Virus record (IMG/VR): IMGVR_UViG_3300042335_000123
Coordinates: 1-31,229 of that record
From: a virus
Reading direction: 5' to 3' (one strand)
Length of the DNA: 31,229 bases
Positions 4,691 to 25,841 of the stretch are shown here, piece after piece. The notes beneath the pieces were generated by a model that was given only the letters and a program-made list of their open reading frames with translations, searched no databases and was not told where the DNA came from. The stretch's first letter is position 1; each line of letters starts with the position of its first letter. Position numbers and translations under genes: made by a program.

Positions 4691-6528
4691 CTGAAATAAA
4701 GTGCTACAATTAAGTTTACGTTTGTTGGATTTGTCGCCCAAGTAGGTGCTGTGAATTTTAACTCGAAATAATCGCCCGAAACAAACGATGCACCCGATAA
4801 CCCCGTTGCTTGTACATATACGTTTGCCGCATTCATCAATACGCCCGTTGATATAGTGAAATCTGTCGTGTTGTTTTTTCTTATTGCCAACGTGCCTGAT
4901 TCACCACTTCCGATTGTACCTGCTACCCTGACCATTATCGATGCCGCAATCAACTGGAATGATGCAGCTACATAATGCCTACGTGCCGCCGCCGTTGTTC
5001 CCCAATCCAATGATGCAGATAAGTCACCTGCATAGTATGTCGTCGCATCTAATGGGTTAAATGCCGTTGGTGCGATTCTGTGCATAAACACGCCCGACTT
5101 CTGATTAAATGTCGTCCAATCCGTTGATGACAATGCACCCCTATTGGTTGATGATGCAGTTGGTATGTTGATTGTAATCGTGCCGCTTGTCGTTATTGGC
5201 GAACCGCTGATATTTATGTCGCTCCCTGTCGTGCCTGCTGCAACTGCTACCGATGTGACCGTGCCGCTTGTTAATGTTGGAAATGTTTGCAGACTTCCAT
5301 CGCCACGCACATATTGCGAAGTGCTGCCACCTAATACCGTGCCAAGCGACTTGTTCTTCCATAGATTGTTCGTTCCTGTTTCATATACAAGCAGATTGTT
5401 ATTTGCAGGCGTTGTGATTAGGACATCGTGCAATTCGTTAAGTTCATATCCGTTCTGTGGCTTGATGTATATCTGACCATTACCTGCATTCGCTCGTTCT
5501 ACTATACCAATATACACAAGATGGTTCGGTGCAACTGGCTTCGTTGCAGTTAAAGTGCCTGCCGTAGCACCTAAGTATAACTGGTCACCTGACGTATAAG
5601 CTGACGTGTTCACGCCCGATATTACGCCCTGCGTTATGATGAAACCTTTTTGATTAGCACCTATGCTCGAACTGAATACAACACCGACCGTTTGCGCTGA
5701 AGTTGCATCTCCAGTATTCGATGCTAACTTAACGCTCATTCGATTGCCCTGCGCACCAAAGGCATATACTGGTTGTCCTTTGGTAATTGTTACTGAATCA
5801 GCATTCGTGACATAAGCAAATAATTGATTCGGCGCAACACCTATCATCTGGAAGTTAGTGCCATCATATATCAAGATAAACTGCTGCCCTGATTCAATGT
5901 CGCCCCCTGTTACCTGAATATTCAACTGCTTCACTAATGTCTTTGCCCCAAGTCCGTTTATGTTGATAGTCGAATCATCATCATTCCCATTGGTGAATTT
6001 AACTGCATATACATCCCCCTCTGTATATGATGCCACTCCCGATATGGTTACCGTGTATGTGTTCGTGCCTGATGCTACGCCATAAGATACACCACCATCG
6101 ATTGTCCACGTTCTGTCTGCTGACAAGTCCTGCGTGTTGCCGTTAATCGTTATCGTTCTGGTCGTAGGTACGCCACCCGATGAACCGCCACCGCCCGTAC
6201 TCGCTGCCCACGTTGGTACGCCTCCACTGCTTACCGTTAACACCTGCCCCGATGTGCCTATCGGTAATCGCTGCCATGTACCGCTGCCGACATAGTATAG
6301 GTCGCCTGTTGCAGAATTGTTGCGTGTAATCAGGAACTCACGAATGCCTGCATTCATCCGCATCCATACCTTGCTGTCTGCCACGTTCGCCATTATCTCG
6401 CCCTCATATATGTCCGTTGCACTCCACGTACCATCCGTGAAGTCGCTTGTCGGTCCTGCCGTTGGTACAATACCAGTCACGGTGCTGTACTTCTGTATCA
6501 TCTTGCTGTCTTGTATATTGATTGGCAT
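4687..6528 (-). CDS. Tail fibre or receptor-binding protein
   Basis: A 613-residue protein rich in Thr, Ser, Gly, Ala and Asn and poor in Lys, as fibres are. The N-terminus (1-120) carries motifs common in Bacteroidetes-phage fibres: YYVGSGTWQRLPIGTSGQVL, SSGGVPTWAAS, then a poly-Gly/Ser linker. The middle consists of beta-rich segments with repeated VTVTSVAVAAGTTGSDINI-like strands and an N-x-G-A-L-S-S-T-D-W-T-T-F-N-Q-K motif frequently seen just before a C-terminal domain. The last 125 residues form a separate beta-sandwich-like domain that probably contacts the host surface. It is the only obvious adhesin complete in the window. No chaperone or self-cleaving C-terminal motif is visible. 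Confidence 0.72.
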   Translation of the reverse strand: MPINIQDSKMIQKYSTVTGIVPTAGPTSDFTDGTWSATDIYEGEIMANVADSKVWMRMNAGIREFLITRNNSATGDLYYVGSGTWQRLPIGTSGQVLTVSSGGVPTWAASTGGGGSSGGVPTTRTITINGNTQDLSADRTWTIDGGVSYGVASGTNTYTVTISGVASYTEGDVYAVKFTNGNDDDSTININGLGAKTLVKQLNIQVTGGDIESGQQFILIYDGTNFQMIGVAPNQLFAYVTNADSVTITKGQPVYAFGAQGNRMSVKLASNTGDATSAQTVGVVFSSSIGANQKGFIITQGVISGVNTSAYTSGDQLYLGATAGTLTATKPVAPNHLVYIGIVERANAGNGQIYIKPQNGYELNELHDVLITTPANNNLLVYETGTNNLWKNKSLGTVLGGSTSQYVRGDGSLQTFPTLTSGTVTSVAVAAGTTGSDINISGSPITTSGTITINIPTASSTNRGALSSTDWTTFNQKSGVFMHRIAPTAFNPLDATTYYAGDLSASLDWGTTAAARRHYVAASFQLIAASIMVRVAGTIGSGESGTLAIRKNNTTDFTISTGVLMNAANVYVQATGLSGASFVSGDYFELKFTAPTWATNPTNVNLIVALYFR

Positions 6529-6529
6529 A

Positions 6530-9013
6530 CTATCCTCTTATTATGTGAATGTTTGATGTCGCTGCAAGGCTTCGCACTTCATCCTTACCGCCCACCACTA
6601 CGTTATAGAATGAATCAGCAGCGATATTGCGTATTTCATCCACACCGCCGATGACAAGGTTGTAATTGACAAGGTTATCAATCGGGTTGTCTGTGTCGCC
6701 TGCTACGAATGGTGTACCCTCTTTGATTTTCAAGAACTCGCATTTTGTAACCTGCGCATTAATAGGATTGTAGTTCTCAATCTTATTAAGTCGGTAATAT
6801 GAATTGTCGATGAAATACAATTTTCTGAAGTCAAGATTGAATATGTCTGAAACCGTTATATTCAAATACATAACAACTATCTTGCTGTCCTTATCCGTTA
6901 TCTCTGCGATGTATTTGCTCCAGTATTTGTTGTATAGATTGTTGTCCGTATATGTTAGTGGTGCATCAAATACCCAATACACCTGCTTTGGCTTGTCGAA
7001 TAATAAATCTAATGTCGGTTCTTGTGGTTTGTCTGTATGTCCTGTGAATGGATATTTTAGATAAGTTGTTTCTACCGTGTTGCTTGTTAGTGGGTCGTGT
7101 GTTACTCTATACTTACCATCAAACATACCTGAATAATGCAGTATGCGAATGTTGAAGTCGAATGGTGATGTTTGATTGTCGCTAAATTTATATATGGCAG
7201 GCGTTACCGTTAAGCCTAACTTTTCATTTAAATGTGTCGGTGAAAATATTAATTCTATTTTATTTTCTGCACGTACAAAGTCGTTGTCTATGTTAAGTGA
7301 CTTCTCGCCATATATTTGTTTCCATAGGTCGGTATAGATACTGTTGTAATAATCAGTGTCAGGCTTGTATGATAATTTGAAACTGCTAAATTCAAGTTCG
7401 CCCATCGGGTATATCTCAATCTGCCTGCTGTTATCCAATTTCATTGTCCAGTCCAACACATCACTGCTCATAAAGTCATTGTAAGGCTCAATGATTAGGT
7501 TGTTTATGTTGTCTTTATCAACATCAATATAAAGGTTGAACATCTTGACAAGGCTCATTAAGAAGTCAACCTGTTTGATGTTTGTCGGCGCAAATAAATT
7601 CAAGTTTGTTACTGGTTCGGTAAATACTCCAGTTGTATTATCATATCCGTTGTTCAAATCAAATGCAGGCGATGTGCTGTCATTATCGAATACTATCTTA
7701 TAGTCAACTTGTGGACCGTTAACGCTTATCGGACTTGATACATAGGCATAGCATCCGTTGTTTGGAAGCCCTGTGTTAACTATATCCTGATACTCAACAA
7801 AAAAATATGAACCTGGGTCATTTACTCCAAGATTTCCTCTTTCTTCAATTACTAAGTTATTTGCAAAAGTAAGCGTGATATATATTTCATCGCCATAGTA
7901 CAAATCCGTTATTGCTTCTAATTGCGTATAGTAGTCGTTGTTTGTCGCTAATGTGGATGCTAATACTGCTTCCTGTGTATTGTCATAAACTGATTTTCTA
8001 ATCAATTTAACTATTGCAGATGTTGCTGGTTGTAATGTTATCACCAAGTTTGCATATATCTTCGCCTTACGTTTCTGTAATTTGTATGGTATGATTAATT
8101 TCTTAAAGAATGCAGAATCAAAGAATGCGCTTGTATAAGTAAAATTTATCGAATCAAATATGCTGTCAACTATTTGCTTTGCATATACCGCAGGTATTAT
8201 ATTGTTTGATTCAATGTTGGATAGCGTTACGCCAGTTGCTCCGTTATTAATTAATGTATAAACATATCCCTCACCATCAGGCTCGCCGTTCTCAAAGTTA
8301 GTTGTGATTGTACCATTGAAATTGTCATATACTGCATTGTTCTTTATTATGCTTGTATCCCTGCTGTTGTTAATGTTGGCTAAAGTTCGTTTATGGTTAT
8401 ACTGCGACAAATCAACTTCAGTCAGCAACTTATTACCTAAGCTATTAAAAAAACTGCCTATTCTCCCGAATACAGATATTTCGTATTCAATGAAGTCACG
8501 TGTGCGGTTTATCTGAAGTAACTGCATCACGCCCCTGAACTGCTCTATCGTGTCAATCTCGATGTATGCAAGTGCCTTAATGTTAGGATTAAAGCTGCCA
8601 TCAATATCAATCTCGAATATGCTGCCGAATAGTGCGTTGTTCGTGTCTGTGCCTGGTAGCCTTACGGTCTTGCTGAATGAACCGTTGCGCTTGTCAGGAT
8701 TGCGTATGTCTGCAATGTTATAGGTTAATGTGAACGGTATATCGTCGTATAAATCCACCTCTACATATTCAAGATAAAAGAACACACCGCTCTGACTTGT
8801 CGGCACGGATGCGTTCAATGTAAGGCTCTGCGTTGTGCCGTTGGCTGATAATATCTTGCGCTCGATGTCGCCTGTGCTTGTCCTTAAGATTATCGTCTTG
8901 CCGTTGTCGGCTGACGTGAAGTTCGTGTTACTGCCTTGTACCGATATGCTGCCTGCCGATAATGTTACCGTGCCACGCCTGTTCGGTGATATATATAATT
9001 GCGTTCTGCTCAT
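6530..9013 (-). CDS. Large tail protein, probably tail-tip or baseplate
   Basis: An 827-residue protein whose first 110 residues are a beta-rich domain, followed by the segment VDLYDDIPFTLTYNIADIRN and KRNGSFSKTVRLPGT. This segment is a signature of a family of tail proteins in Bacteroidetes siphophages. The segment IEQFRGVMQLLQINRTRDF resembles the hub/tail-tip domain of such proteins. The rest is rich in Asn, Tyr and Asp with long beta-strand runs. The C-terminus has two near-identical repeats (IGGVDEIRNIAADSFYNVVV and VGGKDEVRSLAATSNIHII). It overlaps the preceding tail gene by ATGA and is followed by the fibre after 1 nt, so tail tip is the best inference. No lytic or protease motif was found. 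Confidence 0.62.
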   Translation of the reverse strand: MSRTQLYISPNRRGTVTLSAGSISVQGSNTNFTSADNGKTIILRTSTGDIERKILSANGTTQSLTLNASVPTSQSGVFFYLEYVEVDLYDDIPFTLTYNIADIRNPDKRNGSFSKTVRLPGTDTNNALFGSIFEIDIDGSFNPNIKALAYIEIDTIEQFRGVMQLLQINRTRDFIEYEISVFGRIGSFFNSLGNKLLTEVDLSQYNHKRTLANINNSRDTSIIKNNAVYDNFNGTITTNFENGEPDGEGYVYTLINNGATGVTLSNIESNNIIPAVYAKQIVDSIFDSINFTYTSAFFDSAFFKKLIIPYKLQKRKAKIYANLVITLQPATSAIVKLIRKSVYDNTQEAVLASTLATNNDYYTQLEAITDLYYGDEIYITLTFANNLVIEERGNLGVNDPGSYFFVEYQDIVNTGLPNNGCYAYVSSPISVNGPQVDYKIVFDNDSTSPAFDLNNGYDNTTGVFTEPVTNLNLFAPTNIKQVDFLMSLVKMFNLYIDVDKDNINNLIIEPYNDFMSSDVLDWTMKLDNSRQIEIYPMGELEFSSFKLSYKPDTDYYNSIYTDLWKQIYGEKSLNIDNDFVRAENKIELIFSPTHLNEKLGLTVTPAIYKFSDNQTSPFDFNIRILHYSGMFDGKYRVTHDPLTSNTVETTYLKYPFTGHTDKPQEPTLDLLFDKPKQVYWVFDAPLTYTDNNLYNKYWSKYIAEITDKDSKIVVMYLNITVSDIFNLDFRKLYFIDNSYYRLNKIENYNPINAQVTKCEFLKIKEGTPFVAGDTDNPIDNLVNYNLVIGGVDEIRNIAADSFYNVVVGGKDEVRSLAATSNIHIIRG

Positions 9014-11003: not shown

Positions 11004-11630
11004 TCAGTTCTTCCAAAATAATATACCACTTCCATCTCTTCTCGTAGTTGTCGGCAGTGTTTGTTTCAACTGCTTGGTCTGTTTGTCGGCTTCCGAAACC
11101 AAATAGCTTAGTGTAGCGTCTAACAAAGCGTTGAAGTGAAGATAAAAAAAAACCGTAATCGGATAGGCAACATCAATCGTCATCTTCGCCTTAAATATGT
11201 CGGCTCGCCTTATCATATCTTCAGTGCTGTATGTCTTGCTGTCGCTCATAAAGATTGCAAGTATCTTGTGCATATTGTATATGATTTCATCCTGCGTTTT
11301 GCTTAACAATTCCAAATCTATGTACTGCGCAAGTTTCAGTTTTTCCATCTTCATCTGCAAGTTATACTTCACCCCATCGAACTTGACCTGCGTAGGGATG
11401 TGGTCTGCGCTTGGGAACTGATTGATGAATGTTATTTTGTTCATCATAAAGGCATAGTCATCCATATCCACGTTGCCGATTACTTCTTCACTCTGTCCTG
11501 TTAGCACTGCAAGTATCTTGATGTCCTTTTCCAATACCAAGCCATCAGGCATCTTCAGTATCGCATATATCTCTTGGAACTTGCCTATGCTGATGTCGCT
11601 CCAGTCTGTCGGTAGGGTTATTCGTATCAT
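11004..11630 (-). CDS. Unknown protein after the large terminase, possible tail assembly chaperone
   Basis: A 208-residue soluble protein, taking the ATG at 11630, which overlaps the TerL stop as ATGA. An upstream ATG at 11672 would add 14 residues inside terL and is less likely. The N-terminus reads MIRITLPTDWSDISIGKFQE, followed by a mostly helical protein with the segment DIKILAVLTGQSEEVIGNVD. This layout (beta strand, then an I-x-L-G-K-F-Q-E-like helix, then a D-x-x-L-L-T-G motif) is common in proteins next to tail genes of Bacteroidetes phages. The C-terminal tail is basic and Thr-rich. A chaperone role is inferred from position and the small overlapping frame behind it. Confidence 0.5.
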   Translation of the reverse strand: MIRITLPTDWSDISIGKFQEIYAILKMPDGLVLEKDIKILAVLTGQSEEVIGNVDMDDYAFMMNKITFINQFPSADHIPTQVKFDGVKYNLQMKMEKLKLAQYIDLELLSKTQDEIIYNMHKILAIFMSDSKTYSTEDMIRRADIFKAKMTIDVAYPITVFFYLHFNALLDATLSYLVSEADKQTKQLKQTLPTTTRRDGSGILFWKN

Positions 11631-12799
11631 CGGAATAAAGTTACTTTGTTTAATTGTCTCGTTAGCCTGCAATGGTTAGCAAGTGCAAGGGCGCACACCG
11701 TATCATCGTGCATCCCATCGGGCGCAGAATATCGCACACCACGTGCGCTGTATGTGTATTCGAATGATTCCATTTCTTCTTGCATTACCCCACTTAAAAT
11801 AGAAACCTCACGCTTTTGTACCGATGTAGCCAGCTCCAACATTATCTGCTGCTTCGATTCTGATGTGAACTTGAACCCCTCTGCGTTTGGACAAATTTTG
11901 ACCAATTCTTCGACAATCGGGTCGCCGACACCAGTGCTATCTATCAATGCAGGTGTGGTGCCGATTAGCATCTTCAGTATTGCAGTGGTGCTGCTCCAAT
12001 CCTTTTGAAAACGCTCGAAGTACGCTATGCTGCCGTTCTGATGTAGTCCGACGATGCAGGTGTAGTCGCTCGACTTAGCAAGGTCAACGCCGTAGAAGTG
12101 TACGTTGGTGGCGTATGGTTTATTCTGTATCTGTTTTCGTATGTGTTCAAGTCCGAATGGGTTGGCTGTGTTGTCGTTGAACTCGGCAAGGTACTCCTGA
12201 TTGAATGCGATGTCGGGCAGGTCTTTACGTGCTGCTTCAATTTCGTCTTTGTCGATAAATGGATTTGTTGATGTCGGCATTTTGAATGAAGCCCAGTCGT
12301 TATCCGCTTGTCCTTTTGCGTATAACTTGTAAAAGTCATTTTTGCCTTTCGGTGTGGATAGCATCCAACCATCGCCACGCATATCTGTTAGTGTTGGTCT
12401 GATGCTTTCAGTCCATAGCTGCCATAGGTTCTTCGCATAGGCTGCTTCATCCACAATAGCTAACTTGTATTTTCTTGAACGACCTGCAAGTGGATTGTCA
12501 AGTGTCCAGAACTCGATGCTGCCACCTGTTAGCAATTCAATTATCTGATTGTCGTGCTTCCGTTTGATTATCGGATAAAGCCTGCTGTATAGTTCTTTGA
12601 AAGTGCCTTCGAGTAGCTTGTATGTCGGCGTGAAATATCCGACTGGCGCATTCTCTTTCATTGCGCAATTAATCATCAACCTTGTTGCAAGGTATGACTT
12701 ACCCCATCGCCTGCCGCAGTTTAATACGTTAAATCGCTTGGCTTCATTCAGCACCTGTATCTGTGCTGCGTGCGGCTTCGGTCGGCGTATCGTCGTCAT
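11627..12799 (-). CDS. terL: Terminase large subunit
   Basis: A 390-residue packaging motor. The ATPase domain has the Walker A-like motif CGRRWGKS (28-35), Walker B LAIVDEA (113-119) with the catalytic Glu118, and the coupling motif STPKG (148-152). The nuclease domain has the RNase H-type acidic residues Asp239 in YGVDLAKSSDY, Asp287 in LIDSTGVGD and Asp365/366 in HDDTVCALALA. All elements needed to pump and cut DNA are present, although the protein is shorter than most TerL proteins (about 450-600 residues). It overlaps terS by 56 nt; no better start is found because the Walker A motif is already near the N-terminus. Confidence 0.93.
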   Translation of the reverse strand: MTTIRRPKPHAAQIQVLNEAKRFNVLNCGRRWGKSYLATRLMINCAMKENAPVGYFTPTYKLLEGTFKELYSRLYPIIKRKHDNQIIELLTGGSIEFWTLDNPLAGRSRKYKLAIVDEAAYAKNLWQLWTESIRPTLTDMRGDGWMLSTPKGKNDFYKLYAKGQADNDWASFKMPTSTNPFIDKDEIEAARKDLPDIAFNQEYLAEFNDNTANPFGLEHIRKQIQNKPYATNVHFYGVDLAKSSDYTCIVGLHQNGSIAYFERFQKDWSSTTAILKMLIGTTPALIDSTGVGDPIVEELVKICPNAEGFKFTSESKQQIMLELATSVQKREVSILSGVMQEEMESFEYTYSARGVRYSAPDGMHDDTVCALALANHCRLTRQLNKVTLFR

Positions 12800-13142
12800 C
12801 TATTAGTCGGATTGTCATTTCGGTCTTCACGTCTGCATTCTCTCTCGGCTTACCATATACCCTTGTCAGTAATGTTTCAAGCGAATACAAGCTGCCTTTT
12901 TCAATGCTCTTGCGAATAGCTGCTGCAATAGTTTTTTCAAGCACGGTTGCCTTTGGGTTATCCCATACCGACTTCAACTCTTCCATATCCATTGCCATCA
13001 TTACTTGTATGGTGTCGTTTATCTCGGATAGTTTATAGCCCTGCTCTTTAAGTAGGCTTACATACTTACGTGGTCTGCCGTTTGGGTTGCCTGACTGCCC
13101 TTTCTTGAATTTATGCGGCTCTATGTTTTCAGCTTTCGGCAT
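12744..13142 (-). CDS. terS: Terminase small subunit-like DNA-binding protein
   Basis: A 132-residue protein starting MPKAENIEPHKFKKGQSGNP with the basic motif FKKGQSGNPNGRPRK, which is typical of a family of small terminase-like proteins encoded before terL. A helical core (about 30-105) would form the oligomerisation unit, and the C-terminal tail is acidic (IDDDDTPTEA), probably to contact TerL. It recognises phage DNA for packaging. It overlaps the Mom-like gene by 14 nt upstream and terL by 56 nt downstream, so it is translated as part of the same run. The assignment is by motif and position. Confidence 0.75.
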   Translation of the reverse strand: MPKAENIEPHKFKKGQSGNPNGRPRKYVSLLKEQGYKLSEINDTIQVMMAMDMEELKSVWDNPKATVLEKTIAAAIRKSIEKGSLYSLETLLTRVYGKPRENADVKTEMTIRLIDDDDTPTEAARSTDTGAE

Positions 13143-13908
13143 CGTTGTTATTTCGCTGTTTTATTTGAGCGGCAAGGTCGCTCCGAACGCCATCACCCGA
13201 CTGGAAGCCGGGCGCACTACCTTGTGCTATTGCCGCATTTTTACGCTCTTTCAAAGATACTTTTTTGCCTTTATACATTCCTGCCCCCATTTCATCTATT
13301 TTGCTAAATGGTAATATCGGCACGGTTATTTTGCAAGTTTTGTCAATTAGGTAAATATATCTTAATTGAAAACCATTTAGATATTTAAATTCTTTAGGTG
13401 CTGCCGCTTTGCCGTTATTATTTAATATATGTTTTCCCTTTTGAAATGTAAAATCTGAAACAACTTTGCCATTCAATACACCCAAAGTTTGATTTATTTT
13501 TATTGATGTTAAATTAAAACCACTTGCACGATATATTGTACCATCTCCGCATTGTGTTCCATCGCTAAAACTTAATATCCATTTAATATGTGATGCATTT
13601 TTTTTAATTAACTTAATAGTAATTGCAATGCATCTGCTTTCACTATATTTTGGCAAATAATTATCAAATGCCATTCTGTTCAATTCAAGCATATCATTCC
13701 ATCCAGTGTTAGTTACTAATTGTAAAACTTTTCTTTTGTCCATTGGACTACCATAACTTAAAACTCCGTGAAGTTTATCATCAAGGAAGCATCCGAAATG
13801 AAGACTGCTATTTGGAACGCATTTTCCTGAATAATGGTGCTGCTTTACAAACTCATTTGCAATTTTACTTGGTATTACTTTTACGATTATTTCCTTTGCC
13901 CTGCCCAT
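13129..13908 (-). CDS. Mom-like DNA adenine modification protein (GNAT-type fold)
   Basis: A 259-residue protein with the pattern of the phage Mu Mom family: FVKQHHYSGKC (20-30), then CFLDDKLHGVLSYGSP (40-55), ELNRMAF (75-81), YSESR (88-92) and SFSDGTQCGDGTIYRASGF (113-131). In Mu, Mom adds a carbamoylmethyl group to adenine N6, which protects phage DNA from many restriction enzymes. The core appears complete. The C-terminal 60 residues (GAGMYKGKKVSLKERKNAA and GFQSGDGVRSDLAAQ) form a basic tail that may bind DNA. The gene body from about 13300 to 13900 is more AT-rich than its neighbours, a sign of recent acquisition. A ParB-like gene overlaps it by 22 nt. An N-acyltransferase acting on another substrate is the main alternative. 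Confidence 0.68.
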   Translation of the reverse strand: MGRAKEIIVKVIPSKIANEFVKQHHYSGKCVPNSSLHFGCFLDDKLHGVLSYGSPMDKRKVLQLVTNTGWNDMLELNRMAFDNYLPKYSESRCIAITIKLIKKNASHIKWILSFSDGTQCGDGTIYRASGFNLTSIKINQTLGVLNGKVVSDFTFQKGKHILNNNGKAAAPKEFKYLNGFQLRYIYLIDKTCKITVPILPFSKIDEMGAGMYKGKKVSLKERKNAAIAQGSAPGFQSGDGVRSDLAAQIKQRNNNDAES

Positions 13909-14503: not shown

Positions 14504-15079
14504 CTATTTTATTTTTTTTGCTGGTACTCCTGCGTAAACACCTGATTCAGTTATATCGTTCAACACCACCGCCCCTGCTCCTATCGTCACCCCATCGCAT
14601 ATATGTACGCCCTCACGTATCACTGCGTTTGTACCAATATAGACACAATCACCTATCACGCAATAACCACTTACCCGTGCTCCCGGTGCAAGCGTTACAT
14701 AATTGCCAATCACACAATCGTGACCGATGTCTGAATGTAAGTTCATATGCAGATGCCTGCCCGCAATTACGTTAGTGGTTATCACTGCATAAGGGCATAG
14801 TATCATCCCATTGTTGTAGCTTGAAGTCATCGCTGTCTTATGGATGATGCGGTCATAGTTCTGATTTCTCGGCATCTCTTTCACCAACTGCATACGAACG
14901 GTCGGATTGCCTATTGCAATTACCGTTGGCATATCTGTTGGCAACGTGGATAGTGGCAGTTCGTCATTGCATAGGTTATCACTTACGTAGAATGCGATGT
15001 GGTTATACCCCGAATATTTCGCCCACTGCTCTACTTCCCGACCGAAGCCACCCGAACCAACTATCGCAAGGCTATTCAT
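14504..15079 (-). CDS. NeuD/PglD-type sugar O/N-acyltransferase, left-handed beta-helix
   Basis: A 191-residue protein when started at the ATG at 15079 (MNSLAIVGSGGFGREVEQ), which overlaps the aminotransferase stop by 8 nt. An ATG at 15148 is in frame but lies deep inside the preceding gene. The N-terminus is the Rossmann-like unit of the NeuD/PglD family (AIVGSGGFGREV). From about residue 85 on, hexapeptide repeats form a left-handed beta-helix (IIHKTAMTSSYNNGMILCPY and similar), with the catalytic-type His in HSDIGHDCVIGNYVTL. The family transfers acetyl groups from acetyl-CoA to sugars, often an amino group made by a DegT enzyme. The neighbouring gene is such an enzyme, so the pair could make an N-acylated amino sugar. 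The sugar itself is not known. Confidence 0.82.
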   Translation of the reverse strand: MNSLAIVGSGGFGREVEQWAKYSGYNHIAFYVSDNLCNDELPLSTLPTDMPTVIAIGNPTVRMQLVKEMPRNQNYDRIIHKTAMTSSYNNGMILCPYAVITTNVIAGRHLHMNLHSDIGHDCVIGNYVTLAPGARVSGYCVIGDCVYIGTNAVIREGVHICDGVTIGAGAVVLNDITESGVYAGVPAKKIK

Positions 15080-15707
15080 AATATACTGCGAATTTAGACA
15101 AATCAGGATAAGGCAAGCTGATGTCGGGCATTTCCTTTGCCGTGCCATCCAAGTTGTAAAACTGCTGCATATCTCGTACGCCCTTTGCTGCTATTTCAGG
15201 TAACAGATAAAAGTTCCAACCAAGCATCTCGAATGTATCTACATGGTAGCTGCATTCACCCCTGCCGCTGAACCTCGCACGCTTGAACCAATTATATGCG
15301 TAAAAATTGTCAGTCAGTATCGCCCCTGCCTTTCCAAGTTTTAGATGCTTGTATGGTCCTGTAAATGATAGGCATTGATACTGATGTTCTCGATACATAC
15401 CTGCTGTAAATCGCAATGCTGAATCCCAAACCGAACTGCCTATAAGCTGATATTCGCCAGTCAATATTCTTTCGCTTTCAATGAAGTTCACCTTATTACC
15501 TGAATGTATGATTGCACAAGGCACTGATGGATAAGTGTGCTTTGGTATGCTGATTGTCTTGTTGACTACCTTACCCATATGCTTTTCATACATCAGCGCA
15601 AGAAATAACGCATTGCTTTGATTATCTACTGCCACTGCATATGGTGAACCTGTGTATTCGCATAGCTTCCTTTCAAATTCTGCTGTGATGTCGTATATTG
15701 ATGTCAT
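15072..15707 (-). CDS. Half-length DegT/DnrJ-type aminotransferase-like protein
   Basis: A 211-residue protein. It has the features of the N-terminal large domain of the DegT/ArnB/PglE sugar aminotransferases: a phosphate-binding segment AVDNQSNALFLAL (26-38), a WDSALRF segment (94-100) in the place of the usual EDxAQ region, and the PLP-lysine region CLSFTGPYKHLKLGKAGAI (112-130), in which Lys120 is the likely Schiff-base lysine. Full-length family members have about 360-400 residues. The C-terminal small domain is missing and the next gene begins immediately, so this is a compact version, not a sequencing break in an obvious sense. Position beside a NeuD-type acyltransferase suggests that it aminates a nucleotide sugar or serves as a binding protein. 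Confidence 0.65.
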   Translation of the reverse strand: MTSIYDITAEFERKLCEYTGSPYAVAVDNQSNALFLALMYEKHMGKVVNKTISIPKHTYPSVPCAIIHSGNKVNFIESERILTGEYQLIGSSVWDSALRFTAGMYREHQYQCLSFTGPYKHLKLGKAGAILTDNFYAYNWFKRARFSGRGECSYHVDTFEMLGWNFYLLPEIAAKGVRDMQQFYNLDGTAKEMPDISLPYPDLSKFAVYYE

Positions 15708-16987
15708 TGCCTTGCTTTTATGAAGTCATCGAAACTGCCATCATAGCCCTTATGTGCATACTCCCACTTGTATTGTCGGTATAGTGGGTTCACCTCTTCT
15801 ACGTTGTTTATTTGATTTTCAAAATAGTTATTCAGATACCCTATTCTGTTTATGTTGTTCCAATGCTTGAACATAGTGCTTTCAAGACCGCCATAGTATT
15901 TTTTTGGCTCTTCAAGTCCACCGATATGCCTTAAAAACTTCAAGTCAGCACACGATATTGACTGCGTACACGCCTGCGTTGGTTGCCAAATCTCATAGTT
16001 CATATAGTGCCACTGATGATAGCCACGCTCAATCATTTCACGCCTGCATATGTCGAACATAAGGCATAAGTATTTCACATTCTCGTGCTGTATCACATCC
16101 ATCATTGCCGCATCCCACCCTTGCGTTACAGGGAACGAATCACAATCGTATAGAATAGCATAGTCATAGTTCAGTGTGTTTATCAGTTCGTTATAGCCTG
16201 CTGACAACCCTCTGTTGTATCGCTCACCGATAATGGTTATGTTGTATTTGCTTTTAAGCATTTCAACCATCTCAACGGTCAGGAATGGATAGGCATTGTC
16301 CACTGCATATATGGGCAGGTTAAGTGTATTCGTGTTCCTCAACTGCTGCATACTGCGGTCAATGATTTCATATTCATTGTATAGCAGTGTGAATATCGCC
16401 TGCGTTTTTATTTTCTTGCGTACAACAAATTCATTGCCGTACTGACCAAGCACATCATATTCTTGAAAGTTTATTGCATCTACGGCAGGTCTAACTTCAG
16501 GGCTGTATAGGTGGTCGTTGTAATCATCAAAGACTATGTAGCCGCCATCAGATACCATCTTGCTGTATAGCTTAAAGTCGTTTTGCACTCCTGCATAGGA
16601 ATGGTCGCCATCAATGAATAGAATGTCAATCTTATCGCCGTTTAGCAGTTCCTTTACTATATTGGCTGTGGATGGGTATTGTGAATTGGCTTCGATGTAT
16701 TGATAGCTGTTGTTATGTTTATTCAATCTGCTTACGTTGTCCATCACTCGCTCCTTAGGTATCGGACCGCCCAAGTCTATTGATATGACATTCGTATTGG
16801 GTCGCTGCAACATCAAACACGCTGAACCGCCTGCATAACAACCTATCTCTACATAGTTCAACTGCCTGCCATTATCATATGAATTAGCAATGTCGAATAA
16901 AATATGGTATTGCAGATGAAAGGTTTCATTGTTTATTGCGGCTGCAATCTGTTTTGTCAGTTCGAGCGATTCTGTCGTGATATTCAT
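15704..16987 (-). CDS. SAM methyltransferase fused to a GT2-type glycosyltransferase
   Basis: A 427-residue two-domain protein. Residues about 30-190 are a class I methyltransferase of the Methyltransf_24 type: YVEIGCYAGGSA (45-56, SAM loop), SIDLGG (69-74), LFIDGDHSY (123-131) and YIVFDDYND (150-158). Residues about 195-427 are a GT-A fold: FTLLYNEYEIIDRSM, AVDN (228-231), RYNRGLSAGYNELI (256-269) and the metal-binding DCDSF (281-285). Methyltransferases of this type act on sugar hydroxyls, so the protein could add and methylate one sugar. It overlaps both neighbours by ATGA. The fusion is intact, with no stop or frameshift between the halves. Confidence 0.82.
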   Translation of the reverse strand: MNITTESLELTKQIAAAINNETFHLQYHILFDIANSYDNGRQLNYVEIGCYAGGSACLMLQRPNTNVISIDLGGPIPKERVMDNVSRLNKHNNSYQYIEANSQYPSTANIVKELLNGDKIDILFIDGDHSYAGVQNDFKLYSKMVSDGGYIVFDDYNDHLYSPEVRPAVDAINFQEYDVLGQYGNEFVVRKKIKTQAIFTLLYNEYEIIDRSMQQLRNTNTLNLPIYAVDNAYPFLTVEMVEMLKSKYNITIIGERYNRGLSAGYNELINTLNYDYAILYDCDSFPVTQGWDAAMMDVIQHENVKYLCLMFDICRREMIERGYHQWHYMNYEIWQPTQACTQSISCADLKFLRHIGGLEEPKKYYGGLESTMFKHWNNINRIGYLNNYFENQINNVEEVNPLYRQYKWEYAHKGYDGSFDDFIKARQ

Positions 16988-17247
16988 TTTGTGCGCTTCC
17001 GACCGTTTACTGGTTTGCTTTCATAAGTAGCGTAAATCGTGTGTTCATATAGTCGTTTCATCATATCCTGTACGCAGGTCGGGCAGGATAGGTCAGGCGG
17101 TGGCATATTGAATAACTCTACGTGTACGGATAGCATCGTCATCAGGTTTGACTGCGATTGGTTGTCGCCTGATACGAAGCCTGCCACTTTCCACGTGTTG
17201 TATGTAGTCCACGCTGCCTTTAGTCGTTCGTATTGTGATTGGTTCAT
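16984..17247 (-). CDS. Small protein with a CPTC motif, function unknown
   Basis: An 87-residue soluble protein with a Cys-x-x-Cys motif in DLSCPTCVQDMMKRLYEH and a basic C-terminus. The first half is an amphipathic helix (YERLKAAWTTYNTWKVAG) that may mediate dimerisation. A single CxxC is not enough for a zinc ribbon unless it dimerises. Both ends overlap neighbours by ATGA, so it is translated between the membrane protein and the methyltransferase-glycosyltransferase. Small proteins with a C-P-T-C-V-x-D-M motif occur in other Bacteroidetes phages, but no role is known to me. Confidence 0.6.
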   Translation of the reverse strand: MNQSQYERLKAAWTTYNTWKVAGFVSGDNQSQSNLMTMLSVHVELFNMPPPDLSCPTCVQDMMKRLYEHTIYATYESKPVNGRKRTK

Positions 17248-17507
17248 AGCTTAGTGATGTATTTTGTTATGATGTACCCTGCGAACATCGATGTGAAGCA
17301 CAAAGGTATTAATATTTCAAATGACACGTGGTTGATGATGCCAAGTGTCAGGCATACCCAGAACGATAAACACTTCGTGCAATCAAAGGGCTTCATTCGT
17401 TTGATGTTGAAGAACCACTTGAATGTCTGTACCACATTGCTCACAGGGTAGATGGCTGCTGCAATGAACGGCGACAATATCAATATCCATTCACGATGAA
17501 GTTCCAT
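17244..17507 (-). CDS. Small membrane protein with a CxxC motif
   Basis: An 87-residue protein with hydrophobic segments at about 7-26 (ILILSPFIAAAIYPVSNVV), 47-63 (FWVCLTLGIINHVSFEI) and 65-84 (IPLCFTSMFAGYIITKYI), so two or three membrane passes. Between the first two is the motif PFDCTKCLSFWVC, a metal-binding or redox-like pair that recurs in phage membrane proteins with C-x-x-C-x-x-F/W. It starts 28 nt inside the end of the glycosyltransferase gene and overlaps the next gene by ATGA. Its location in the glycan cassette suggests an anchor or transporter role near the membrane, but this is inference. Confidence 0.6.
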   Translation of the reverse strand: MELHREWILILSPFIAAAIYPVSNVVQTFKWFFNIKRMKPFDCTKCLSFWVCLTLGIINHVSFEILIPLCFTSMFAGYIITKYITKL

Positions 17508-19180
17508 AGCTGTACACGTTTTTTGTTCACAGTGTCGATGTGAAATTTATGTTTAACTGATTCGTATAACGCATTGCCGTAGTCCTCACGCATTGCAGGG
17601 CTTTCAATCATTCGCTTGATTTGTTTGTACCAATCTTTATGGCTTCGGTTAGGCTCAACTGGCACATAGTTGCTGCCGTTGTAGTGCGGTTGATAGGGAT
17701 GGATATTTGATACGATGCACGGCTTCTTCTTGAATCCTGCTTCTGCAAGTTTAAGCGGCGACTTGCATTTGTTGAACTCATTCTCCTTAAGCGGCACAAG
17801 GCACACATCCATTTCGTCTAATAGGTAGCCGTAGTTGTATATGTCCTTGCCCCATATACGCCTGTACTTTTCGTTAGTCGTGATGTTGGTCGTTTCGTAT
17901 TTCTTTAACTCGGCTGCATAGTCAGGTGATAGGCAGTTGTAGTTGTTTGTAAATACCTTTTCGTACTTGTATGATTCCTGCGCCTGCATCGGTATCGGTC
18001 GTTCTTCATACACGCCGTTGATAAGAAATGCCTGCTTCTGTCCATTGCTGAAGCCACCATACACAATTTGATACTTGCCATTTATTGACAAGTCATCGTG
18101 AAGCCTTTCCATCCCATCAGCCATCATCTGTATGTCAGGCAAATGACAGATGCCGCCCTGCCACCCTACACGCACAAGGTCTGATTCCGTTGCCGTACTG
18201 CTCCATTGCGGTTGGTCTGGGTTGATGCCGTTCGGTAATACCTCTACATTCGTGTTGTAGTTCTTTATCTTGTCTGCAAGGTATGATGTCGTTGTGGTCA
18301 CATAGTCTGCCGCTCGTATCGTGTCCACCACTCTGTTTGATTCTTCTCTGTTATATGCATAGTATAGAACGTGGTCGTGTGGCAGTACCCAGTAATCGTC
18401 AATGTCGTACAACACCTTGCACCCTGCCTGCTTGGCTGTGTTGATTAGGTGTACAGGGTTGATTGACCTCGATGCCTGCCTTGTGATTACTAACAACTGA
18501 TAGCTCTTAAAAAAATCTGCTTTCGCTTCGTCTATGTTGTTTATTAGCGTGATGTCGATGTGCTTGTAGTTGTCTGCGATATGGTGTGCAGGAATAAGGC
18601 AGCGGTGGTACTCCACGCCCGATTCAGGTACGCTGCGAAGCATCAGCACCTTGTATGGTTGGTTGTTCATATAGTCTTTGATTTGTCTTTTGCTTTTCTT
18701 TAGCGAGAAGTGGATGGCTGATGTCGGGATGCCTGTTTCTCGGTGCAACTTGCGAATTGAACCCTCTGCGATATAGTGCTGCAATATCCGTGCATCGTAG
18801 GGGTACTTCCCGATGCTGCCGTAACTTTTTTCTTGATCTTGGATGTAGTCTTGGATGCCTGCTTCGTCATAGGTTGTTGGTTTTGTTTCATCAAAAGTAA
18901 CCACATTTATATTTTCATTCAGTTCATCGTGTAGGTGCTTACGGTACTTGTAGTTGAATGTCGAACGTGGACTGCGCCACATCGTCATCACAATACGTAC
19001 TGCAAAGAACTTGATGTTGTTCGCCCCCTGTGCTTCAATAGCTGCAAGTTTATTCTTGTCGTACTCCAACAGGCACAATAACACTTCTTGATACAAGTCG
19101 TCTGTCAGGTCGTGGTTGTTGGTTATCTTCTTGCAGATGCTCAACAACTCGCTGCCTGTATATAAGTCCTGAAAGGTCAT
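17480..19180 (-). CDS. ECF-sigma-like domain fused to a GT4-type glycosyltransferase
   Basis: A 566-residue single frame. Residues 1-85 look like sigma region 2: ICKKITNNHDLTDDLYQEVLLCLLEYD (15-41), with the DDLYQEV core, then FFAVRIVMTMWRSP (58-71). Residues 128-170 form a region 4-like HTH (EGSIRKLHRETGIPTSAIHF). A short linker follows, and from about 176 to 566 a GT-B enzyme of the GT4 family is visible: DIDDYWVLP (259-267), NVEVLPNGIN (311-320), RVGWQGG (337-343) and VPLKENEFNKCKSPLKLAEA (462-481) with the donor-binding Glu. ECF sigma factors direct promoter choice; GT4 enzymes transfer sugars from nucleotide donors. An internal start at Met171 is possible, but no stop separates the halves. 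It overlaps the RuvC-like gene by ATGA. Confidence 0.78.
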   Translation of the reverse strand: MTFQDLYTGSELLSICKKITNNHDLTDDLYQEVLLCLLEYDKNKLAAIEAQGANNIKFFAVRIVMTMWRSPRSTFNYKYRKHLHDELNENINVVTFDETKPTTYDEAGIQDYIQDQEKSYGSIGKYPYDARILQHYIAEGSIRKLHRETGIPTSAIHFSLKKSKRQIKDYMNNQPYKVLMLRSVPESGVEYHRCLIPAHHIADNYKHIDITLINNIDEAKADFFKSYQLLVITRQASRSINPVHLINTAKQAGCKVLYDIDDYWVLPHDHVLYYAYNREESNRVVDTIRAADYVTTTTSYLADKIKNYNTNVEVLPNGINPDQPQWSSTATESDLVRVGWQGGICHLPDIQMMADGMERLHDDLSINGKYQIVYGGFSNGQKQAFLINGVYEERPIPMQAQESYKYEKVFTNNYNCLSPDYAAELKKYETTNITTNEKYRRIWGKDIYNYGYLLDEMDVCLVPLKENEFNKCKSPLKLAEAGFKKKPCIVSNIHPYQPHYNGSNYVPVEPNRSHKDWYKQIKRMIESPAMREDYGNALYESVKHKFHIDTVNKKRVQLWNFIVNGY

Positions 19181-19614
19181 AAGCCATATACTAACATCGC
19201 CGCATCTCGCACTTCCTGATTCGTTCGCTTATCGTACCCTGTTAGCCGCTTGAATTGCTCGGCATTGACCTTGTGCTTCTTAGGGATGACAAGGTGGCAC
19301 TGATAGTTGTTGCGTATGCAGTACACCTCAATCAACTTACCTACTGCGTGATTCTCGCCCACGTTCTTGGCTATCTTCTGCGCCACGTTTGACTTGCCGC
19401 CGTGCCAGTTGCTTTTTTTATTCAGCCACCCTGCTTCAAGTTTTACAATCGTTCTGCGCCTGCTGTTCCACTCTTCAATCGTCTGCAACACATCGAAGAA
19501 TGAACCTGTGAATAGTTGCATCTTGTCGTCAGCATATCGGTCATAAACACATAACCCTGACTTGTCAAGGTCAGGGTCAATGCCAATATACAATATGTGG
19601 TTGTCAATGGTCAT
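19177..19614 (-). CDS. RuvC-like Holliday junction resolvase
   Basis: A 145-residue protein with the RNase H-fold signature of RuvC: YIGIDPDLDKSGLCVYD (9-25, catalytic Asp13), VKLEAGW (57-63, Glu60), and EVRDAAMLVYG (134-144, Asp137). In host RuvC these acids hold the metal that cuts four-way junctions. It could resolve branched DNA before packaging, which suits its place ahead of the terminase genes. The length is close to bacterial RuvC (about 170), slightly shortened at the C-terminus. It overlaps both neighbours by ATGA. A crossover-junction nuclease of another RNase H subfamily is the only realistic alternative. Confidence 0.82.
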   Translation of the reverse strand: MTIDNHILYIGIDPDLDKSGLCVYDRYADDKMQLFTGSFFDVLQTIEEWNSRRRTIVKLEAGWLNKKSNWHGGKSNVAQKIAKNVGENHAVGKLIEVYCIRNNYQCHLVIPKKHKVNAEQFKRLTGYDKRTNQEVRDAAMLVYGL

Positions 19615-20008: not shown

Positions 20009-22258
20009 CTATTGAATTGTGATTGTTTTAGTTGTTGACCAAGCACCTGAACCTGTCTGACATCGTGACTGCGATTGTACTTCAATCGTCGTTCCTATTG
20101 TTGCAGGTCGTGTGATGGTTAAGCCATTAGTTGTTGTTTCGCTCCAAGCCGTAGTTCCTACATTGCGGAAGCGTATTGCGTAGAACTTGCTGCCGTTGTT
20201 TACGAATGTAGTTGTCCACCTGCCACCACTTGATGACAAGGTGAAGTCTGCCGGTGCTTGTGATATGGCAGGTACAGTGTATGTGATTTCACTTGTCGCT
20301 GACTTCGTGCCATTAGTACAGGTTGCTGTTGCCCTTAATACCACGCTCGATGCCTGTATCGGTAATGTGGTTGTGTATGGTGCTGATAAGTTCTGCGTGT
20401 TCTGTGCGCCGCCATTCACTGCATAGCTGAATGATATGGATTGATAGTTCGTGTTCGGTGCAATGCTGACCGTTACCGCTTGGCACGTTGTTGATGCTGT
20501 TATGGTCGGCTTTGTGCAAGTCGGGGGTGGTGGCGTTACGCTGATGCTGATGGTCACGAAGCCATCGCCAGTGCATCCATTTGTCGATGTAACAGTAACG
20601 CCGTATGATGTAGTCACAGTCTGCGTGATGGTGATGCTCTGCGTGGTCTGTCCACCTGCCCATTTGTATGTGTATGGCGCAGTGCCGCCTGTTGCGTTGG
20701 CTGTGATTGTGGTCGGTGTACCTGCCTGTACGCTCGATGGCGCATTGATTGATACCTGCATCGGGTTCGTGATGGTGAAGTTCTTCGTCGCCGTTGTGCT
20801 GCCGTTTACATTCGTAGCCGTTAAGGTCACGGTCTTTGTGCCGCCTGTTGAATAGGTTACATTCGGACTTATCGCTGTTGATGTGGCAGGTGTTGCGCCG
20901 CTGCCCAAGTTCCACAAGTAGCTTGTTGCATTCTGTGATTGATTGGTGATGTTAGCCTGCACCCCTGCACAAGTCGTGCTGATGTTGCCTATTGTCACTA
21001 CTGGTAAGGATGAAGCAGGGGCAAATGTGCCTGTGATATAATACCTGCCCACGCTGTTGTATCGTTTGTTCTGTGGTCTGTTCGCAATCGGGTCAGTGTC
21101 GTAACAGGGGGCATTCATATTCGGGTTGGCTGATGAACCTACCTGAATGAAGTACGTGCCTGCAGGCTGATTGATTAGCGTTATGCTTGATGACAATTTC
21201 TGCAAGTTAGAATCAAGAGCAATGATGTTGCCCGATGCGTTGCGTATGATTAGCCTTGTGTCCATTGTCGCCTGCCAGTTATCCGACTGCCTGAATGAAA
21301 ATGGTCGGCAGTTGATGGTGAAGTTCTGCGCCGTTGTTATCGTGAACCTGAAGTAATCTTCATCGTAGATTGATACAGGTGGATTGTCGATGTAGTGGAA
21401 TGAAGTCGTGTTCGTGAATGACCTGCCTATCATACCCGAATCGCTGATTGCGTTATTCACTATGTTAATATTCTTAGCCGTTGCCGTTGTGTTTCCGATG
21501 TCGTCTGCTTTCAATGATAATAGTTTTGGATGCGGCGTGTAACCCTTGCCGCCTATCCGTTGAAGTGATAATTCTGCGATGTCATCCTGCCAGTTCGGCA
21601 TATTGAAGCCGCCCGACATACGCCACCCACAAGGACCGCTTATTGGTCCGCATACCCAAGCCCCGATATTGCGACCGTATGCCACGCCCATCTGTGGTGC
21701 GAATGATGTTTCGCCCTCACCCTTGCCGTAATAATAAGCTGCTACTGCTTGACCTTGTGCGTTGTTCTCTGAATGGTGATTCAAATACAGCATATGCCCT
21801 GCTTCGTGTGCTGTTGCGTTGGCAATGCTCTTGAAGTCAGGTTGTCCGTTGCTCGTTATGTTTTTAGTGAATACAAATCCAGGTTGATATGCCTGCCATC
21901 CCCACGCACCGACAAAGGCAACACCGCCGACACCGCCATACCACGAATCCGTTGGCGTTAATACAATCGTGCCACGCTTGCTTGTCTGTGCTGCGTTATA
22001 TACGGATTCGATTGTGGTCACGTTCAAGTCGAATATCCAATAGTAGTTCGCAACAGAATTGAATACATCACGAATCTGTTGTGTGGTGAATCCTGATGAT
22101 GCAGCGTTGATTGTACTTGCTGACCAGTTCGGGTTGTTGATTACTGCGCCATCGAAGTCAAGGAATAGAACATTGGTGCTGTTCGGCAACGATTGAAGCT
22201 GCGGAACTTGTGCCGACACGTAGGTGCATATCAGCAGTAGAAGTGTAATGATTCGCAT
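20009..22258 (-). CDS. Secreted metzincin-like metalloprotease with PKD/Ig-like repeats
   Basis: A 749-residue exported protein. A signal peptide (1-16, MRIITLLLLICTYVSA) is followed by a catalytic domain (about 25-240) with the zinc motif HEAGHMLYLNHH (151-162): three His ligands at 151, 155 and 161 and the base Glu152. Position 158 is Tyr in place of the metzincin Gly. A PPC-like domain (283-376) is next, then a PKD domain (about 428-497, SYLWNLGSG), a second Ig-like repeat (500-575), a Pro-rich linker, and two Cys-bearing repeats to the end. It has the architecture of secreted Bacteroidetes proteases. There is no typical type IX sorting C-terminus. The role could be degradation of host surface proteins. 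It has a hairpin over its start codon. Confidence 0.8.
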   Translation of the reverse strand: MRIITLLLLICTYVSAQVPQLQSLPNSTNVLFLDFDGAVINNPNWSASTINAASSGFTTQQIRDVFNSVANYYWIFDLNVTTIESVYNAAQTSKRGTIVLTPTDSWYGGVGGVAFVGAWGWQAYQPGFVFTKNITSNGQPDFKSIANATAHEAGHMLYLNHHSENNAQGQAVAAYYYGKGEGETSFAPQMGVAYGRNIGAWVCGPISGPCGWRMSGGFNMPNWQDDIAELSLQRIGGKGYTPHPKLLSLKADDIGNTTATAKNINIVNNAISDSGMIGRSFTNTTSFHYIDNPPVSIYDEDYFRFTITTAQNFTINCRPFSFRQSDNWQATMDTRLIIRNASGNIIALDSNLQKLSSSITLINQPAGTYFIQVGSSANPNMNAPCYDTDPIANRPQNKRYNSVGRYYITGTFAPASSLPVVTIGNISTTCAGVQANITNQSQNATSYLWNLGSGATPATSTAISPNVTYSTGGTKTVTLTATNVNGSTTATKNFTITNPMQVSINAPSSVQAGTPTTITANATGGTAPYTYKWAGGQTTQSITITQTVTTSYGVTVTSTNGCTGDGFVTISISVTPPPPTCTKPTITASTTCQAVTVSIAPNTNYQSISFSYAVNGGAQNTQNLSAPYTTTLPIQASSVVLRATATCTNGTKSATSEITYTVPAISQAPADFTLSSSGGRWTTTFVNNGSKFYAIRFRNVGTTAWSETTTNGLTITRPATIGTTIEVQSQSRCQTGSGAWSTTKTITIQ

Positions 22259-24253: not shown

Positions 24254-24733
24254 TTATTTTAATTTATTAAGTTGGTCTAAGTTCCAAAAATACATTGGTG
24301 GTGAAACATTTTTATTTTTTACAATTCCATTCCAATACCTGCCAATATTATTTATGTTAATGTAATAATTACCGCATGGCTCAATATCTTCATGTATAAA
24401 AACAAGAAATAAATCAATTCCAGTTGCTTGACTTATTTTTTTATATTGACAATATAATCTGTTATCACAACCAGTTTCAATAATGTTACCGAATTTAACC
24501 CATTTCTTTTTTCTTTTTACTTCAATAAATACACATTTTTGATTCTTAAATATAGTTAGATCAGGGCTTGTAATTACTTCATTAGAAAGAAAAATTTTTG
24601 GTGCAATATCTTCACTAAATTGGTACAATGGTAAAATTGAATATCCTTTATTTAAGAAATATTCTGCAATTATCTTTTCTCCATCTTTACCATATTGTAA
24701 TTTATCCTTAAAATTTTCCTTTGTCTGCTCCAT
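24254..24733 (-). CDS. PD-(D/E)XK-type nuclease-like protein
   Basis: A 159-residue protein if started at the ATG at 24733 (MEQTKENFKDKLQYG). An ATG 54 nt further up lies within the preceding gene. It has the restriction-endonuclease-like pattern: a helix with Glu (GEKIIAEYFLNKGYSIL), then SPDLTIFKNQKCVFIEVKRKKKW, in which Asp58, Glu71 and Lys73 form the metal-binding P-D...E-x-K set. A basic strand follows. Members include Holliday junction and repair nucleases and phage homing-like enzymes. It may act with the neighbouring methyltransferase as a restriction-type pair, or in replication. It is very AT-rich, like the gene upstream, and overlaps it by 26 nt. Confidence 0.7.
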   Translation of the reverse strand: MEQTKENFKDKLQYGKDGEKIIAEYFLNKGYSILPLYQFSEDIAPKIFLSNEVITSPDLTIFKNQKCVFIEVKRKKKWVKFGNIIETGCDNRLYCQYKKISQATGIDLFLVFIHEDIEPCGNYYININNIGRYWNGIVKNKNVSPPMYFWNLDQLNKLK

Positions 24734-25841
24734 AATGATCCCAGTTTGAACGGTTTTGACGACTAAAAAAATCAAGTTTATTGCCAATACACATACGCTC
24801 TACCATTTCATAAAATGCTTCAGGTTTACGTGAATGCTCACGCCTTGATTCAACTATTAAATCACGCTCTGAACTGCCCTGAATAATTGGATTTCCTTTA
24901 ATTGCTAATAGACAAAATTCAAGCTGCATGCGAACGGTTCTGCCAATACCCATTTTTACTTTATCCCAAACAAGTGTGGCTTTATATTCGAATCCCCATT
25001 GACGAACCAATAAAAAAGAATCTTCTAAAAATGCGTGTGTTGTCCATAAAAACAAAACGCAATTTTCTGCAGCTGGTAATTCAATTTCTTTAATTTGATT
25101 AATAGTCATAGTTGGGTAATCAACTGCACCACGGTTTGAAACTGAATCATAATTCTCACTATCAAATCCGCCTTTTTCAGAATACGCCCATGGTGGATCT
25201 ATAGCAATAACATGGTATTTTTTATCAGGTTGAATTAAATTTTCCTGTTCAATTTTTTGTTTTGTTTCTTCAATTCGTTGATCACGTTCCGCTTTCTTTT
25301 CCTCCTTCTTTATTTCCTGATATGCCTGATTAATACTTACCTCACCAGTTGAAAGTTTTGCTTTTACTTCAGGCGTTGCAATAGCTTCAATTTTCTTAAC
25401 CTTTGCAATGGTGTCGTGTGATACGTTGGCAACTTTTGATATTTCTTTTATAGTGTTTATTGGTTGTATATTCGACTTTTCAGATTTATGAAAAGTGGTT
25501 TTTCTTTCCGTTTCTTTTTCTTTTGCCTTTGCGCTAAACACTTCTTCAAGCTGCAACGCTAAAACGCTTCGTTGATAGTTGCTTAAATTTCGCCTACCAA
25601 ACTGGTTGCGAATCATCCACTCTTTTACCTCAACTTCATTTTCAAAATATTTTTCTTCAGTATTAAATTTAAGATTATGCTTTTGCGATATCTCGTACCT
25701 GTTATGTCCATCAATGATAAAACCATTCCAAGTTAGAATGGCATCACGGATTCCATCTGAAATACAATTTGCTTCAAGTTGCGAATATTCATCCGCAGTA
25801 AGTGGTGGAATTAATTTTTTGAATTCTTCTTTAATTTTCAT
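24708..25841 (-). CDS. ParB-domain fused to MT-A70 adenine methyltransferase
   Basis: A 377-residue protein. Residues 1-80 are a ParB N-terminal-like domain with IDGHNRYEI (43-51). About 85-200 is a KorB/ParB-like HTH segment (TIKEISKVANVSHDTIAKVK, 130-149) plus a Lys/Glu-rich linker. Residues about 207-377 are an MT-A70 methyltransferase: HVIAIDPPW (210-218) with the DPPW catalytic motif, FLWTTHAFL, and the C-terminal REHSRKPEAFYE (334-345). MT-A70 enzymes methylate adenine N6; the ParB domain would place it on DNA. It would protect phage DNA against restriction or mark it. The gene has its own leader and is AT-rich. It overlaps a PD-(D/E)XK nuclease gene. Confidence 0.88.
   Translation of the reverse strand: MKIKEEFKKLIPPLTADEYSQLEANCISDGIRDAILTWNGFIIDGHNRYEISQKHNLKFNTEEKYFENEVEVKEWMIRNQFGRRNLSNYQRSVLALQLEEVFSAKAKEKETERKTTFHKSEKSNIQPINTIKEISKVANVSHDTIAKVKKIEAIATPEVKAKLSTGEVSINQAYQEIKKEEKKAERDQRIEETKQKIEQENLIQPDKKYHVIAIDPPWAYSEKGGFDSENYDSVSNRGAVDYPTMTINQIKEIELPAAENCVLFLWTTHAFLEDSFLLVRQWGFEYKATLVWDKVKMGIGRTVRMQLEFCLLAIKGNPIIQGSSERDLIVESRREHSRKPEAFYEMVERMCIGNKLDFFSRQNRSNWDHYGADKGKF

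What the first reader, a model, noticed from the sequence alone, without database searches (positions are those of the whole stretch)
17480..19180. One protein joins an ECF-sigma-like domain and a GT4 glycosyltransferase
The 566-residue frame starts with region-2 (DDLYQEVLL) and region-4 (HTH) patterns and continues into a complete GT4-like enzyme. I know of no such fusion. Sigma factors act on RNA polymerase and GT4 enzymes on glycans, so the link suggests a regulator of the glycan cassette that is also one of its enzymes, or a sigma fold reused as a docking domain. It heads the glycan genes. What is seen: both domain patterns in one open frame. What is inferred: a functional link.
Basis: partly seen in the sequence, partly recalled or inferred. 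Interest (0 to 1): 0.82.

Follow-up and report, generated by a model that had tools for sequence, protein, structure and literature searches.

The report
Phage sigma-like regulator fused to glycosyltransferase
A group of uncultured phages carries one protein that joins a sigma-factor-like transcription domain to a sugar-transferring enzyme; the join is real and conserved, but in most related phages the sigma-like part is a separate gene beside the DNA-packaging genes, so it is probably a packaging/late-gene regulator that picked up an enzyme rather than a dedicated controller of sugar genes.

Summary
The 566-codon frame at 17480-19180 lies on the minus strand and is real. Residues 1-172 form an ECF-sigma-like unit (regions 2 and 4); residues 176-566 form a GT4-type GT-B glycosyltransferase. 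The fusion is not an assembly error. It recurs without a stop or frameshift in seven other IMG/VR contigs from seven metagenome numbers, in three lineages (about 98%, 75% and 65% identical to the window); one copy is cut by its contig end. Both halves show low dN/dS where it can be computed. The glycosyltransferase clade was found only in fused form. In more than 80 relatives the sigma-like gene stands alone, usually in the order sigma-like, membrane protein, Cys protein, glycosyltransferase, then terminase genes. In one distant relative it sits just before terminase with no glycan genes. The fused glycosyltransferase is not the neighbouring glycosyltransferase of those relatives: a common clade is rejected. 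Best reading: a phage late/packaging-type sigma-like regulator with a fused, separately acting glycosyltransferase. No activity has been shown for either half.

The parts
17480..19180 (-). Fused gene, 566 aa: ECF-sigma-like N-terminal half plus GT4-type glycosyltransferase
   Evidence: same full-length frame in L003-L006 and L110/L111, partial at contig edge in L002
18923..19180 (-). Sigma region-2-like unit, residues 1-86 (DDLYQEVLL at residues 27-35)
   Evidence: Sigma70_r2 E=0.0015; model helices between residues 3 and 79; fold match to RpoE region 2, Z 6.9, 74 residues, 3.1 A
18665..18868 (-). Sigma region-4-like helix-turn-helix unit, residues about 105-172
   Evidence: Fold match to SigR region 4, Z 7.8, 61 residues, 2.0 A; sigma70-ECF profile covers residues 11-170
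17483..18655 (-). Glycosyltransferase half, residues 176-566, GT-B fold
   Evidence: PHROG 7162 E=1.2e-48; Foldseek to PglA, GlgM, MshA, BshA, E down to 1.8e-11
18668..18670 (-). Internal ATG, Met171, conserved in all fused lineages; possible separate start for the glycosyltransferase
   Evidence: not shown to be used
17244..17507 (-). Small membrane protein (CTKCLSFW), overlaps the fusion stop by 28 nt; conserved neighbour of the sigma-like gene
16984..17247 (-). Small CPTCVQDMMKRL protein; conserved neighbour
15704..16987 (-). Methyltransferase plus GT2 glycosyltransferase, local glycan gene
12744..13142 (-). TerS-like protein (DUF5681)
   Evidence: Homologous in position to the TerS rows of relatives; DUF5681 E=2.8e-11
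11627..12799 (-). Terminase large subunit
   Evidence: PHROG 2, E=2.7e-37
19177..19614 (-). RuvC-like Holliday junction resolvase upstream; its stop overlaps the fusion start by 4 nt (ATGA)

Best explanation
The N-terminal half is a phage ECF-sigma-like transcription factor that belongs to the packaging/late-gene neighbourhood of a group of uncultured phages. In one lineage it became joined, with almost no linker, to a GT4-type glycosyltransferase of a different stock from the one that sits nearby in relatives. The likeliest mode of action is two separate activities in one chain: the sigma-like half brings host RNA polymerase to phage genes (probably packaging and structural genes), and the C-terminal half transfers a sugar as part of the phage's glycan or surface-modification set. 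The join keeps the two in step. Shown: family and fold resemblance of both halves, the conserved join, purifying selection on both, and the packaging neighbourhood. Inferred: RNA polymerase binding, promoter choice, timing, sugar and acceptor.
For: Sigma-like family: 9/10 members match sigma70-ECF, 12/12 the phage sigma PHROG; the model has both region 2 and region 4 and the best fold matches are sigma factors. Neighbourhood: SIG > TM > C > GT > ... > TerS > TerL in dozens of contigs; L112 has SIG before TerS/TerL without glycan genes. Fusion: three lineages. Selection: dN/dS where computable is 0.00-0.13 for the sigma half and 0.01-0.12 for the glycosyltransferase. Glycosyltransferase: PHROG 7162 and GT-B fold, conserved KSxLKxxEAG motif. 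Different glycosyltransferase stock: tree support 99/98, a common clade with the syntenic glycosyltransferases rejected, p-AU 0.003.
Against: No profile hit of the N-terminal half reaches a curated cut-off, and profiles built from the phage family alone found no solved structure by sequence. The N-terminal model is moderate (pLDDT 73, pTM 0.46), Foldseek E-values to PDB are weak (0.1 at best) and VIA Z values (below 8) are middling for a helical protein. No promoter or sigma-dependent gene set was identified. The nearly absent linker (residues 172-176) could hinder docking of region 4 on RNA polymerase.
Confidence: 0.5

Rival explanations
1. The glycosyltransferase half acts as a regulatory C-terminal extension of the sigma-like half, as SnoaL or TPR extensions do in ECF41/ECF42: binding of nucleotide sugar or acceptor switches the transcription factor.
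For: ECF sigma factors with regulatory N- or C-terminal extensions are a known class in at least 26 groups (PMC8999054). The linker is very short and the join is conserved.
Against: The glycosyltransferase keeps its conserved motifs and strong purifying selection like a working enzyme. Standalone relatives lack the extension.
Confidence: 0.15
2. The sigma-like half has lost sigma function and serves as a docking domain that tethers the glycosyltransferase to RNA polymerase, DNA or another phage protein.
For: Weak match to sigma profiles, below curated cut-offs.
Against: The region 2.2-type motif (DDLYQE) and the helix-turn-helix are the best conserved parts across fused and standalone forms, while the linker between them drifts, as expected of a working two-part sigma.
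Confidence: 0.15
3. The sigma-like half is a dedicated regulator of the local glycan cassette.
For: Methyltransferase-GT2, aminotransferase and acetyltransferase genes lie downstream in the window.
Against: Standalone relatives keep the packaging neighbourhood with other glycan content, and L112 has no glycan genes there. The cassette differs between fused lineages (L110 has other GT2 genes).
Confidence: 0.08
4. An internal start at Met171 also yields a free glycosyltransferase, so that the gene makes two products and the fused form is a by-product or minor form.
For: Met171 is conserved in all three lineages at the natural start of the glycosyltransferase; its upstream context is A-rich like other starts in this phage, which mostly lack Shine-Dalgarno sites.
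Against: The A-rich context follows from Lys-rich codons; there is no excess synonymous-site conservation there. The frame stayed open across the junction in three lineages, which a mere by-product would not require.
Confidence: 0.1

Closest known systems
[quoted passage not shown]
   Same: Region 2 plus region 4 followed by an added C-terminal domain in one chain (PMC8999054)
   Different: The added domain here is a complete glycosyltransferase, a kind I did not find described; phage-encoded; weak sequence match to ECF profiles
Ltr/RinA/ArpU late transcription activators of Gram-positive phages
   Same: Small regulator gene next to the terminase genes; RinA lies upstream of terS and drives late genes (PMC13123087)
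   Different: Those are about 130 aa; here the model has a region-2-like unit as well. No homology shown; the likeness is of position only
Standalone phage sigma-like proteins (BFVD, e.g. A0A6J7WFY6, annotated sigma-70 region 2)
   Same: Same size and fold, 27-29% identity over the full length for the two best rows
   Different: Not fused to a glycosyltransferase
Phage GT-B glycosyltransferases of PHROG 7162 (e.g. phi92 gp164; homologues in LR756501, L021)
   Same: Homologous to the enzyme half, about 30% identity over about 390 residues for LR756501
   Different: Free-standing; no sigma-like gene detected nearby in L007, L008, L021

Membership tests
ECF (group IV) sigma-70 factors | Region 2 and region 4 present, no region 1.1 or 3 | tested here: met
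   Two helical units joined by a disordered linker in the model; best fold matches are sigma factors
ECF (group IV) sigma-70 factors | Score above the curated family cut-off (TIGR02937, Pfam Sigma70_r2) | tested here: not met
   18.7 bits against 24; 18.8 bits against 42.9. Hence it is called sigma-like here, not filed as a member
ECF (group IV) sigma-70 factors | Binds core RNA polymerase and directs promoter-specific initiation | not testable with these tools
   Needs biochemistry
Ltr/RinA/ArpU late activators | Gene close to the terminase genes | tested here: met
   Standalone relatives; in the window TerS starts about 4.3 kb downstream of the fused gene
Ltr/RinA/ArpU late activators | Sequence homology to those families | tested here: inconclusive
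   No such family appeared among the profile hits; not searched specifically
GT4-type glycosyltransferases (GT-B) | GT-B fold with GT4 relatives | tested here: met
   PHROG 7162; Pfam GT4-type models matched only below cut-off
GT4-type glycosyltransferases (GT-B) | Sugar transfer activity, known donor and acceptor | not testable with these tools
   Needs an enzyme assay

The most novel reading that the evidence does not exclude
A single phage protein couples transcription initiation to glycan metabolism: the glycosyltransferase half senses or uses nucleotide sugar and thereby switches or times the sigma-like half, so that late transcription is tied to the sugar state of the infected cell.
Probability: 0.1. 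Interest if true: 0.85.

Novelty: new variant of a known kind. Interest (0 to 1): 0.5.

Why it matters
Sigma factors with added C-terminal domains are known, but I did not find one fused to a complete, apparently working glycosyltransferase. If the regulator half works, it offers a natural test of whether a phage physically couples late transcription with an enzyme activity. It also points to a little-described family of ECF-like regulators beside the packaging genes of uncultured phages.

Tried and rejected
Assembly error: rejected, the same junction occurs in three diverged lineages. Simple merger of the sigma-like gene with the glycosyltransferase that sits nearby in relatives: rejected, the fused glycosyltransferase is of another stock. 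Late promoter in the 168-nt stretch between the sigma-like gene and the membrane gene of relatives: rejected, that stretch is a conserved small coding frame of about 59 aa. PDB sequence hits of profile A1: set aside because A1 contained L028, which looks like a bacterial ECF sigma gene followed by a probable anti-sigma gene; profiles without it had no PDB sequence hit. Mixed alignment A6 misaligned the standalone sigma rows and was not used. A scan of bacterial and archaeal genome contigs found no relative. Tblastn of the N-terminal half against annotated phages found only that bacterial-like record, and of the standalone relative nothing. Literature searches found no sigma-glycosyltransferase fusion, but the library holds open-licence papers only. 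No second copy of either half was found in the window.

Full report
Observation. The frame at 17480-19180 is on the minus strand, 566 codons from ATG to stop. It starts within the stop of an upstream RuvC-like gene (ATGA overlap) and its end overlaps a small membrane-protein gene by 28 nt, so it sits in a tightly packed run of genes read in one direction.

N-terminal half. Alone it gives weak profile hits: Sigma70_r2 E=0.0015, below the curated cut-off. Its relatives strengthen the case: 9 of 10 family members match the sigma70-ECF model, best E=9e-9, although the window protein scores 18.8 bits against a cut-off of 42.9, and all 12 tested match the phage sigma PHROG. AlphaFold2 with 17 aligned sequences gives two helical units, about residues 3-79 and 106-172, joined by a disordered linker (mean pLDDT 73, pTM 0.46). 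The top PDB matches are sigma factors, but with weak E-values. VIA-align gives Z 7.8 with 2.0 A over 61 residues for SigR region 4 and Z 6.9 with 3.1 A over 74 residues for RpoE region 2. These Z values are middling for a helical protein, so the case rests on sequence profiles, fold and domain order together. In BFVD the best rows are free-standing phage proteins of 160-232 aa, some annotated as sigma factors.

C-terminal half. It matches phage glycosyltransferase PHROG 7162 at E=1.2e-48, and the full model matches the enzymes PglA, GlgM, MshA and BshA. The conserved KSxLKxxEAG motif is present (KSPLKLAEAG in the window). The last helix of region 4 ends at about 172 and the first strand of the glycosyltransferase begins at 176, so there is almost no linker.

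Is the join real? Full-length fusions occur in L003, L004 and L005 (75% identity), L006 (98%) and L110/L111 (65% over the sigma half), and a contig-edge copy in L002. These are seven contigs with seven metagenome numbers. dN/dS, where it could be computed, is 0.00-0.13 for the sigma half and 0.01-0.12 for the glycosyltransferase half; for pairs with L110 the synonymous sites are mostly saturated. A scan with the fused glycosyltransferases alone found close relatives only in the fused form (one further hit at 21% identity was not followed up).

What relatives look like. At least 80 contigs carry a standalone relative of the sigma half of about 170 aa, roughly 20-26% identical to the window. The usual order is SIG > TM > C > GT, then methyltransferase and ParB-like genes in some, then TerS and TerL, as far as each contig reaches. 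L114 has SIG > TM > GT > C. L112 has SIG, two small or unassigned genes, then TerS-like and TerL genes, with no glycan genes between (these were read from the translations, not profile-tested). So the sigma-like gene travels with packaging genes, and the membrane and Cys proteins follow it in fused and most standalone phages alike.

Origin of the fusion. The fused glycosyltransferases group with free-standing enzymes of other phages (L007, L008, L021, LR756501; support 99/98), and a clade with the syntenic glycosyltransferases is rejected (p-AU 0.003). The fusion is therefore not a simple merger of the two genes seen near each other in relatives. The fused sigma halves group together with modest support (88/85).

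Mechanism. I think the likeliest reading is two independent activities in one chain: a sigma-like regulator of packaging or late genes, and a glycosyltransferase. The regulator role is inferred from fold, profile and neighbourhood, by analogy with the RinA/Ltr activators beside terS (PMC13123087); no promoter was found. ECF factors with C-terminal extensions are known (PMC8999054), so a regulatory role of the glycosyltransferase half is a serious rival. Met171 is conserved at the natural start of the glycosyltransferase and could serve as an internal start, which is unproven.

Verdict. The 'regulator of the glycan cassette' reading is not supported. I rate it a new variant of a known kind.

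Noticed in passing
window 20009-22258 (-): Predicted secreted M12B reprolysin-like metalloprotease with PKD and PPC domains in a phage; also in the fused-lineage relatives L003, L004, L006 (57-98% identity).
   Followed up: partly
window 13129-13908 (-): Mom-like DNA-modification protein between a ParB_N-like gene and TerS.
   Followed up: no
window 15072-15707 (-): DegT-type aminotransferase of only 211 aa, shorter than the 360-position profile.
   Followed up: no
L009 597-779: Conserved small frame of about 59 aa (MKPDEKAKSLL...) overlapping the stop of the standalone sigma-like gene in many relatives; the fused lineages have the glycosyltransferase in that place.
   Followed up: partly
L028 (MT835716) 5962-7412: Record labelled 'Bacteriophage sp.' holds what looks like a bacterial ECF sigma gene followed by a probable anti-sigma gene; possibly a mislabelled bacterial contig.
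   Followed up: partly
window 24708-25841 (-): MT-A70-type methyltransferase.
   Followed up: no
window, most gene starts: Starts mostly lack Shine-Dalgarno sites and have A-rich upstream stretches, as is typical of Bacteroidota; the host was not otherwise tested.
   Followed up: partly
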